DNA from: Trueperella sp.
GTDB taxonomy: Bacteria; Actinomycetota; Actinomycetes; Actinomycetales; Actinomycetaceae
DNA length: 17,385 bases
Assembly (NCBI GenBank): GCA_012727825.1
Contig: JAAYGH010000325.1
Coordinates: forward strand, 1 to 17,385
Direction of reading: 5' to 3'
This document shows, in pieces, positions 13,328 through 16,072 of the stretch. Under the pieces are notes generated by a model, which did not search any database, was not told the DNA's origin, and worked only from the letters and a program-made list of their open reading frames with translations. Position 1 is the stretch's first letter. Each line of letters begins with the position of its first letter. The position numbers and the translations under genes were made by a program.

Positions 13328-13972
13328 ATGAGTCTTGGCGCCGGATCGATGAATCTGTTCCTTCCCGCAATTGAGCGGCTATCCCGCCTTCCCGGAAAGG
13401 CCCTCGTGGCGATGTCAGGCGTTGGCAATGGCCTGCTGCTCCTCGTGGGATGGATGGCCGGCCAACGACGCGGCGGGTTCGGCGGATGGCTCCCCTTTAG
13501 CGTGGGCGTGGCGCTCACTGCGGTGCTGGTGATCTTTGCGTTACGCAGGCATCAACTCGAGAGCAGGCTGGACGCTTACTCGGAAGCAGCAATCGAGCGT
13601 TACAACAGGCTCATGAATCCGCCACGCAATGCCGGTGAAATTTCTGCGGCTGCCGGCGAGGGCGTGGTGATTGACCAAGATGGCGTGGTCATTCCAGGTC
13701 CGAACTCGGAAGCGATGCGCCAAGAGGCAGAACTTCTCAAAAGCCGTGACCGCCAGCGGGCGGCTGAGGTCGAAGCTGCGATTCGGAAGACTACATTCAT
13801 GCCGCGGCTCGAGGCCGCGCAGCGGGCGGCAATCGCTGCCGCTGGCGGAGTGGAAAAAGTACCGCACCTGAAAGGCGACCTACGTTGGACGATCCTCAGC
13901 GCGGGGATCACGTTGGTCTCACTGCCTTTCATCGGATTTCTTATTTTTGTTGCCCTTTTGCTGTGGCTCTGA
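13328..13972 (+). CDS. Three-helix membrane protein of unknown function
   Basis: No family is recognised with certainty. The 214-residue protein has two N-terminal hydrophobic helices (about 25-45 and 52-72), a long charged, probably helical region (about 73-180), and a strong C-terminal hydrophobic segment (about 188-214, ending FIGFLIFVALLLWL). Residues 100-125 hold a Gly/Val-rich stretch. The start is ATG at 13328; AAAGGAG lies 15 bases upstream, which is far. A second in-frame ATG at 13349 (MNLFLPAIERL) is possible. It lies 12 bases after the HAD gene, which suggests co-transcription. Composition is like its neighbours. Confidence 0.85.
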   Translation: MSLGAGSMNLFLPAIERLSRLPGKALVAMSGVGNGLLLLVGWMAGQRRGGFGGWLPFSVGVALTAVLVIFALRRHQLESRLDAYSEAAIERYNRLMNPPRNAGEISAAAGEGVVIDQDGVVIPGPNSEAMRQEAELLKSRDRQRAAEVEAAIRKTTFMPRLEAAQRAAIAAAGGVEKVPHLKGDLRWTILSAGITLVSLPFIGFLIFVALLLWL

Positions 13973-14041: not shown

Positions 14042-14524
14042 ATGGACGTACCTGAAGAACTTCTTGAGAAAGGTGACGTGGCACGTCGACATGTGCGTGA
14101 GCATCCTAAGGCGCTCGCGGGGAATGTGCTCGGTGCCCTCGTTACAATCACGGCCGTTATTGTAGCGATGGTCATCCTGCCTGACTCTTTGTATCCGTGG
14201 GCTCATTGGGCGATCGGCCTGACTGGCACCGTGCTTATTATTTTGGTGCTCATTTATCCGTTCCTCCAGTGGCTCACCTCGACCTACACAATCACAGACA
14301 AGCGCCTCATCGCGCGCTCCGGGTTCCTAAAGAAGACGATCACCGAGGTGGCACGCGCAGAGATTAAGAACGTCGCCATCGAGACCGACGTCGTCGATAA
14401 ATTGACGAAGAGTGGCTCGCTCATCGCCACCACTGATTCGGGTCGGACACTGATGTTCCGGCACGTTCCCGACGTGGCTGATTTCAGGGCGCAATTGGTC
14501 GACGTACGCATGCAGGAGGACTAA
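14042..14524 (+). CDS. Bacterial PH-domain (YdbS-type) membrane protein
   Basis: The 160-residue protein has two hydrophobic helices (about 27-46 and 55-78) followed by a bacterial pleckstrin-homology-like domain (bPH2, formerly DUF304). The entry TSTYTITDKRLIARSGFLKK is characteristic, followed by beta strands through residue about 150. Proteins of this type are membrane anchored with the PH-like domain in the cytoplasm; their role is poorly defined. The gene has its own probable -10 element and likely starts without a leader. Its TAA stop is directly followed by the ATG of the next gene, with no gap. Confidence 0.92.
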   Translation: MDVPEELLEKGDVARRHVREHPKALAGNVLGALVTITAVIVAMVILPDSLYPWAHWAIGLTGTVLIILVLIYPFLQWLTSTYTITDKRLIARSGFLKKTITEVARAEIKNVAIETDVVDKLTKSGSLIATTDSGRTLMFRHVPDVADFRAQLVDVRMQED

Positions 14525-15211
14525 ATGTCATTCATGGATTCACTCAAGCGAGCCGCGGGCCTCGTGGGCCGCCAGGTCATGGGCGATGTTCGGCGCAACG
14601 TCAACAAGGAGCTCGGCAGACGAACACGCCAAGGCCTCCGTTCCAGAGCCACACACGCAACAGATCCGCGGCGTCCCGATTCGAGCCGACTACAGGCCAA
14701 ACGTAATGATCCCCAGCGCGCGAAATCCGCCAAGTCGAAAGGCGCGACTGGTGCAACGGCCTATGGTGCATGGCCAGGGGCCAGCGAGCGCGCAATCGAA
14801 TACGACATCGAGCGCTATGGCCTGCCCAACTTCGAATATGAGCCAGAGCGCAACGGAGCGCCAGATCCGGGCGAGGTTGTGTGGACGTGGGTTCCGTTTG
14901 ACGAAAACGATGGCCGTGGCAAAGACCGCCCGGTGCTCGTGCTGGCCGACACCGAAGATCACGTGATTTTTGGTCAGATGACGTCGAAAGATAACACTCG
15001 AGATGCCGAGTGGGAAGCCAAGTGGTGACGCCACTGGATTGATGTGGGTACCGGCGAGTGGGATAGCAAAGGGCGCCCATCCGAAGTGCGTCTCGATCGT
15101 TTGTTGGTGGCGCACATGGATCAGATTCGCCGCGAAGGTTCCTTCCTGCGCAAAGATATATACGACGACGTCGTACGTGCGCTCGAAGAATTGCACGGCT
15201 CAGGGCTGTGA
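14525..15211 (+). pseudogene. PemK/MazF-family toxin-like gene interrupted by an in-frame TGA
   Basis: Frame one starts with ATG at 14525 and ends with TGA at 15026-15028 (167 residues). The same frame then continues without any shift for 60 codons to a second TGA at 15209-15211. The N-terminal 90 residues are basic and low complexity. The PemK/MazF-like domain starts at about 112 (PGEVVWTWVPFDE, then GKDRPVLVLAD and FGQMTSKDN). The part after the TGA (RHWIDVGTGEWDSKGRPSEV, then RLDRLLVAHMDQIRREG) is the conserved C-terminal half of the actinobacterial family. No antitoxin gene is adjacent. Options are recent nonsense mutation, sequencing error, or UGA read-through (the stop is followed by C, a leaky context). 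Other genes here use TGA as a normal stop, so general UGA reassignment is excluded. Confidence 0.85.
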
Positions 15212-15352: not shown

Positions 15353-15565
15353 ATGAGCTTCAAGGATGACATCAAGCATGGCGCCGAGTCCGTCAAGGGC
15401 AAGGCTAAGGAAGCCTTCGGTAAGGCGACTGACGACAAGTCGATGCAGTTCGATGGCAAGAAGGATCAGGCCTCGGCTGACGTGAAAAACACTGCCGCTG
15501 ATACCCGTGATAGCGCGAAGGAAAAGGCCGTTGAGGTCGAAGAGAAGTTCTCAGACGACAAGTAG
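15353..15565 (+). CDS. CsbD-family stress protein
   Basis: This 70-residue, highly charged, Lys/Asp/Ala-rich protein has the CsbD-like pattern: DDIKHGAESVKGKAKEAFGK, then DDKSMQFDGKKDQ. It then has helical repeats of the type AADTRDSAKEKA. It lacks Cys, Trp and hydrophobic helices and is predicted to be a soluble, largely helical or disordered protein. Family members are abundant stress-induced proteins of unknown mechanism. ATG at 15353 has AGGAG (15342-15346) 6 bases upstream, an excellent site that suggests strong translation. It stands alone between two hairpins. Confidence 0.93.
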   Translation: MSFKDDIKHGAESVKGKAKEAFGKATDDKSMQFDGKKDQASADVKNTAADTRDSAKEKAVEVEEKFSDDK

Positions 15566-15805: not shown

Positions 15806-16072
15806 GTGGCAAACATTAAGTCCCAGATTAAGCGAAACAAGACCAACGAGAAGCGACGCATCCGCAACAAGGCTTACAAGACCGAGGTTCGCTCGCTCAT
15901 TCGTAAGACCCGCGAGGCTGCGGAAGCTGGCAACGCCGAAGAAGCCAACGAGGCGCTCCGCGTTGCAACTCGCAAGATCGACAAGGCTGTTTCCAAGGGT
16001 GTTCTCCACAAGAACAATGCAGCAAAGCGCAAGTCTAGGCTTGCCAAGCTGATTGCTTCGATCGAAGACTAG
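15806..16072 (+). CDS. rpsT: 30S ribosomal protein S20
   Basis: S20 binds 16S rRNA early in 30S assembly. The 88-residue protein is Lys/Arg-rich and opens with [20 protein letters not shown], then has the family-typical [20 protein letters not shown] and [10 protein letters not shown] near the end. The length is normal for the family. The start is GTG at 15806 with AAAGAG 10 bases upstream. It is preceded by a long leader and followed by a perfect-palindrome terminator, so it is a single-gene transcript. In many actinomycetes rpsT is divergent from or next to lepA; here about 3.2 kb of other genes separates them. Confidence 0.98.

What the first reader, a model, noticed from the sequence alone, without database searches (positions are those of the whole stretch)
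14525..15211. PemK/MazF-family gene split by a single in-frame TGA with a preserved downstream half
Seen: the frame continues exactly after TGA (15026-15028) for 60 codons with family-typical residues (DVGTGEWDSKGRPSEVRLDR), with no frameshift. The stop is UGA followed by C, the context known as the leakiest. Either the mutation is very recent, it is a sequencing error, or the cell makes both a short and a long form. A two-form toxin-like protein linked to a PH-domain membrane protein would be new.
Basis: partly seen in the sequence, partly recalled or inferred. Interest (0 to 1): 0.72.

Follow-up and report, generated by a model that had tools for sequence, protein, structure and literature searches.

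The report
Nonsense allele of orphan MazF-like gene
In this Trueperella-like genome one stop codon cuts a conserved MazF-family gene that is unbroken in a near-identical copy and in nearly all relatives examined, so it is likely a recent knockout mutation or a sequencing error, not a protein made in two forms.

Summary
In detail: a frame opening at 14525 meets TGA at 15026-15028 and continues for 60 family-like codons to TGA at 15209-15211. The two-form reading is not supported. A near-identical intact protein (P0001, 231 aa) matches the piece before the stop in 163 of 170 columns and the piece after it in 59 of 60. The frame is open across the site in 38 of 40 relative loci, and 117 of the 120 listed homologues carry both halves in one chain. 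The residue at the stop's place is the same in 45 of 46 aligned relatives and never Cys or Trp. No SelB over its cut-off and no tRNA-Sec were found. The short product would end at PemK profile position 52 of 109, so a working short form is unlikely. In a 250-kb sample of this genome the filtered comparison showed no gene-internal stop, but that filter is insensitive (it lost this very gene). The stop looks like a single-genome nonsense allele or a base error; only reads can say which. When intact, the gene is an orphan PemK/MazF-fold gene near rpsT and lepA; M. tuberculosis Rv2405 is in print as a solo PemK hit. Its adjacency to a PH-domain gene, kept in 6 of 7 same-genus loci, is the more interesting remainder.

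The parts
14525..15028 (+). Upstream piece: 167 codons plus TGA; basic leader, then the first half of the PemK/MazF domain
   Evidence: Pfam PF02452 20.9 bits (cut-off 23.1), profile 2-52 of 109; residues 1-80 have 20 K+R and 6 D+E
15026..15028 (+). In-frame TGA, not seen at this place in any relative examined
15029..15211 (+). Downstream piece: 60 codons plus TGA, second half of the domain, undecayed
   Evidence: 59 of 60 residues identical to P0001; no Pfam match on its own
14042..14524 (+). PH-domain (bPH_2) membrane-type protein; its stop codon directly abuts the PemK start codon
   Evidence: PF03703 55.7 bits, cut-off 22; found in 6 of 7 same-genus loci
13328..13972 (+). 214-aa protein without Pfam match, conserved in the neighbourhood
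   Evidence: found in 15 of 29 relative loci
15353..15565 (+). CsbD-like small protein
   Evidence: PF05532 59.5 bits; found in 7 of 29 relative loci, all same-genus
15806..16072 (+). rpsT, ribosomal protein S20, conserved neighbour
   Evidence: PF01649 104.4 bits; found in 23 of 29 relative loci

Best explanation
A single in-frame stop codon interrupts one genome's copy of a conserved PemK/MazF-fold gene that is intact in a near-identical copy and in nearly all relatives examined, so it is likely a recent loss-of-function nonsense mutation (or a base error in this draft assembly) and would leave a non-functional half-domain. Shown: the stop, the preserved downstream half, the near-identical intact copy, and the uninterrupted frame in relatives. 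Inferred: that translation mostly ends there, that the 167-residue product does not fold or work, and that the event is recent because the downstream half has not decayed. Of the 0.93 given to this joint statement, about 0.55 goes to a natural mutation and about 0.38 to a base error (rival 1).
For: Near-identical intact protein P0001: 163 of 170 columns before and 59 of 60 residues after the stop. Frame open across the site in 38 of 40 relative loci (L031 and L002 are one T. bonasi place, so 39 distinct; L041 matched with the first half only; the stop in L022 lies ahead of the domain). 117 of 120 listed homologues hold both halves, 115 with exactly one residue between them. The residue in the stop's column is the same in 45 of 46 rows, none Cys or Trp. 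In 148 class genomes including the own, 74 match; besides the window only G112 and G128 report stops inside their matches, and these lie in the leader, about 100 residues ahead of the window's stop. The upstream piece covers PemK profile 2-52 of 109, while P0001 covers 2-108 and passes the cut-off. The model of P0001 is MazF-like, and two strands and the last helix lie after the break.
Against: No raw reads were at hand, so mutation and base error cannot be told apart. Lack of decay is also what a functional read-through product would show. NG86 gave no dS to T. bonasi for either PemK piece, so dN/dS could not be computed, and in any case it would mostly speak to the time before the stop. P0001 has no listed source and stands for a cluster of 9 member sequences, so the frequency of the stop allele in the species is unknown. 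The sample that suggests a clean assembly is small and its filter insensitive.
Confidence: 0.93

Rival explanations
1. Base-calling or consensus error in a fragmented draft genome: the organism's gene is intact. (This is the second part of the joint best explanation, given apart.)
For: The genome is in 361 contigs, 90.28% complete with 1.87% contamination. The downstream half is undecayed and an intact near-identical copy exists.
Against: Among 62 T. bonasi ORFs with a homologue in the 250-kb sample (20,236 aligned residues) no interior stop was seen, and no frameshift-like break in the unfiltered run of T. bonasi ORFs against the sample; but the filter also lost the PemK gene itself.
Confidence: 0.38
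2. Programmed or leaky UGA read-through gives a short and a long protein, both functional.
For: TGA-C context; the downstream frame is preserved; UGA is the stop read through most often in bacteria by the passages seen of PMC5289835.
Against: No relative examined has a stop at this place. The short form has half a domain. No SelB over the cut-off. No tRNA-Sec over the cut-off; the eight places that ring are ordinary tRNAs. The column is never Cys or Trp in 46 rows. TGA-C also ends the HAD gene of this window.
Confidence: 0.03
3. An established pseudogene under decay.
For: A stop inside a conserved domain.
Against: No second lesion in the frame, and 59 of 60 residues kept after the stop against P0001.
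Confidence: 0.04

Closest known systems
Actinobacterial PemK/MazF-family proteins of about 200 aa (named Trueperella, Arcanobacterium and Actinomyces hits; M. tuberculosis Rv2405, 189 aa, listed as a single-gene PemK hit in TASmania, PMC6504116, passages)
   Same: Pfam PF02452 in 46 of 46 aligned relatives; leader plus domain; rpsT within 1.5 kb in 23 of 29 and part of lepA in 12 of 29 relative loci.
   Different: This copy is interrupted by one stop. I did not align Rv2405 itself; its kinship rests on the paper's label and on my recall of its place near lepA.
MazF/PemK toxins of type II toxin-antitoxin modules (MazF-mt3, S. aureus and B. subtilis MazF)
   Same: The predicted fold of the intact relative P0001 matches MazF chains best (E 4.6e-05, TM by target length 0.70).
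   Different: About twice as long, with a low-confidence leader; the two adjacent genes are not antitoxin-like by Pfam; no PDB chain matches the family profile by sequence at E up to 1, and P0001 alone gives only unrelated hits at E 0.19 and above.

Membership tests
PemK/MazF (PF02452) | Pfam profile match over cut-off | tested here: met
   46 of 46 aligned relatives match at E up to 0.01; P0001 has 32.3 bits against cut-off 23.1. The window's upstream piece alone scores 20.9, below the cut-off, and the downstream piece has no match.
PemK/MazF (PF02452) | MazF-like fold | tested here: met
   Tested on the intact relative P0001, not on the window's piece: mean pLDDT 78.3, 13 of the 14 ten-residue blocks from 91 to 230 at 90 or more, MazF structures as first hits.
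PemK/MazF (PF02452) | Arg and Ser/Thr of the RNase site conserved (motif recalled, not from a call) | tested here: inconclusive
   R138 and S157 of P0001 are the same in 46 of 46 rows and position 156 is T in 41 and S in 5; equivalence to the catalytic residues was not checked residue by residue.
Type II toxin-antitoxin module | Adjacent cognate antitoxin gene | tested here: not met
   By Pfam the upstream neighbour is a PH-domain protein and the downstream one CsbD-like. An antitoxin of an unknown family, or the PH protein acting as one, is not excluded.
Selenoprotein / recoded UGA gene | SelB and tRNA-Sec in the genome; Cys in relatives | tested here: not met
   No match over the cut-off; the best tRNA-Sec hit is tRNA-Ser; no Cys in 46 rows. 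The genome is about 90% complete.
Programmed stop-codon read-through gene | Stop conserved across relatives with a conserved extension | tested here: not met
   38 of 40 loci open across the site; 117 of 120 listed proteins with both halves.
mRNA interferase | RNA cleavage activity and growth arrest | not testable with these tools
   Needs a bench assay.

The most novel reading that the evidence does not exclude
The intact family is an antitoxin-free MazF-fold RNase held in check or tethered at the membrane by the PH-domain protein encoded just before it, a vertically inherited cellular RNase switch rather than a mobile toxin-antitoxin module; this genome then shows a lineage that has just lost it.
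Probability: 0.1. Interest if true: 0.55.

Novelty: new member of a known kind. Interest (0 to 1): 0.12.

Why it matters
As a finding about the stop it matters little: nonsense alleles of single strains and base errors of draft assemblies are common (general knowledge). Its use is as a warning that a preserved downstream half and a TGA-C context do not by themselves argue for read-through; one intact near-identical copy settles most of it. The MazF-fold gene without a recognised antitoxin, beside a PH-domain membrane-type protein and near rpsT and lepA, is a modest open question of its own.

Tried and rejected
Selenocysteine: SelB and tRNA-Sec searches of the own genome gave no match over the cut-offs; one SelB hit is the LepA gene of this window, and the eight tRNA-Sec places are ordinary tRNAs; rejected. 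RF2, the release factor for UGA: the prfB search gave three matches, none over the cut-off of 370 bits: 274 bits (profile 13-349), 262.7 bits (profile 187-352, open frame 174 aa) and 28 bits. I guess RF1 for the first and a cut or partial RF2 for the second, unchecked. dN/dS before and after the stop: NG86 gave no dS for the two PemK pieces and the PH gene, only counts of differing sites (PemK part before the stop, 84 codons: 7, 1, 52 at codon positions 1, 2, 3; after it, 57 codons: 11, 2, 34). Reference-free search for split genes by codon bias: 11 candidates in 44 contigs, read by me as adjacent genes or frames with a stronger rival; its threshold would have missed the window's own downstream piece (0.196 against 0.25), so I did not rely on it. 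Reference-based search: the unfiltered run gave 49 stops for 99 T. bonasi ORFs with a hit, many in shadow frames of real genes, the PemK stop among them, and no frameshift-like break; the reverse run gave 43 stops and 2 frameshift-like breaks for 95 ORFs. The filtered run kept 560 T. bonasi ORFs, 62 with a homologue, and gave 7 stops in 4 ORFs, all within alignment columns 15-28, which I read as lying upstream of true starts; one was inspected. That filter dropped the PemK gene itself, so its sensitivity is limited. Reverse: 61 of 161 with a homologue, 3 stops in 2 ORFs on T. bonasi stretches, one late in its match (98 of 114), not followed up. PADLOC: no hits for four proteins; NCBIfam: none for the two PemK pieces. 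The stop-bearing matches of G112, G128 and G043 were fetched: in G112 and G128 the stop falls at residue 40 of P0005, whose residue 140 is the place of the window's stop; in G043 and L022 no stop falls inside the match to P0005. A weak second match in G035 with one TGA (20 bits) was not looked at. Papers: search listings; passages only of PMC5289835, PMC6504116, PMC2701414 and PMC12724246. Of the four papers listed none holds 'PH domain'; that narrow search is all I have on whether the linkage is in print, so I make no claim that it is not.

Full report
What is there. The frame starting with ATG at 14525 runs 167 codons to TGA at 15026-15028 and then continues in the same frame for 60 codons to TGA at 15209-15211. 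No other break is seen in it. Pfam places the first half of a PemK/MazF domain (PF02452, profile positions 2-52 of 109; 20.9 bits, just under the cut-off of 23.1) in the upstream piece and finds nothing in the short downstream piece alone.

Where it comes from. The window is contig C268 of a 1,727,733-base, 361-contig genome, 90.28% complete. The same-genus genome with the best match to this protein, G003, has a contig of 1,903,164 bases, the same length as the Trueperella bonasi record found by name. From this I infer that G003 is T. bonasi and that the window is from a Trueperella-like species.

The intact copies. A protein search listed 120 of 1,586 homologues. The best, P0001 (231 aa), is near-identical: 163 of 170 columns to the piece before the stop, the differences confined to a short linker with a three-residue gap, and 59 of 60 residues to the piece after it. 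It has one residue where the window has the stop. Of the 120 listed proteins, 117 hold both halves in one chain and 115 have exactly one residue between them; the three others are P0009 (140 aa), P0055 (181 aa) and P0059 (162 aa). Of 40 relative loci (L002-L041), 38 have both halves in one open frame; L022 has a stop only ahead of the conserved domain; L041 matched with the first half only; L031 and L002 are the same T. bonasi place. Of 148 class genomes including the own, 74 match; besides the window, G112 and G128 report stops inside their matches, which fall at residue 40 of P0005, in the leader, whereas the window's stop falls at residue 140. In the family alignment the column of the stop has one residue in 45 of 46 rows and never Cys or Trp.

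Recoding. The SelB matches are below the cut-off, and one is the LepA gene of this window. The tRNA-Sec model rings below its cut-off at eight places that ARAGORN reads as ordinary tRNAs, the best as tRNA-Ser; the tRNA-Trp among them has the CCA anticodon. RF2-type matches exist but are below the cut-off and were not resolved. TGA-C is also the end of the HAD gene in this window. Passages of PMC5289835 support more read-through at UGA than at other stops and a +4C effect in yeast. None of this makes a low level of read-through impossible, but nothing suggests that it is used.

Would a short form work? The intact relative P0001 is modelled with mean pLDDT 78.3 and 13 of its 14 ten-residue blocks from 91 to 230 at 90 or more. 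Its best structural matches are MazF proteins (5hk0, E 4.6e-05, TM by target length 0.70). The break comes just after helix 158-169; strands 174-178 and 189-200 and helix 213-228 would be missing. I infer a non-folding or inactive product.

How common are such breaks in this genome? I compared 44 of its 361 contigs (250,282 bases, window included) with 800 kb of T. bonasi. After filtering for gene-like ORFs, 62 of 560 T. bonasi ORFs had a homologue, over 20,236 residues; the 7 stops seen, in 4 ORFs, were all within alignment columns 15-28, which I read as start-site differences, and none was interior. The filter lost the PemK gene itself, so this is a rough look and not a rate; the unfiltered run gave 49 stops, many in shadow frames. 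It gives a slight lean to a real mutation over a generally error-prone assembly, without excluding a single base error.

What the gene is when intact. In the 29 relative loci with about 1.5 kb of flank, tblastn finds rpsT in 23, part of lepA in 12, the 214-aa protein in 15 and the PH-domain protein in 9; within the genus these are 7, 3, 7 and 6 of 7. The PH-domain gene was not found in the G001 locus, and beyond the genus it was found in 3 of 22. In the window its stop codon directly abuts the PemK start codon, and neither adjacent gene is antitoxin-like by Pfam. TASmania lists M. tuberculosis Rv2405 (189 aa) as a single-gene PemK hit (PMC6504116, passages).

Verdict. The stop was seen at this place in no other sequence examined. 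A recent nonsense mutation is the most likely cause, a base error a close second, and a two-form protein is unlikely.

Noticed in passing
14042-15028: A PH-domain membrane-type gene directly abuts the orphan PemK gene and is found in 6 of 7 same-genus loci and 3 of 22 beyond; its role is unknown.
   Followed up: partly
14744-14758: The linker between leader and domain differs by a three-residue gap and a few residues between the window and P0001, so two distinct alleles of one species-like group are in the data.
   Followed up: no
13328-13972: A 214-aa protein without Pfam match is kept in 7 of 7 same-genus loci and 8 of 22 beyond.
   Followed up: no
L022; G052:C1:171639-173689: One relative genome carries two PemK-family matches about 1.5 kb apart, a possible tandem duplicate.
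   Followed up: no
L139 (G112) and L140 (G128): Two class genomes have a stop in the leader part of their PemK matches, about 100 residues ahead of the window's stop; perhaps ahead of their true starts.
   Followed up: partly
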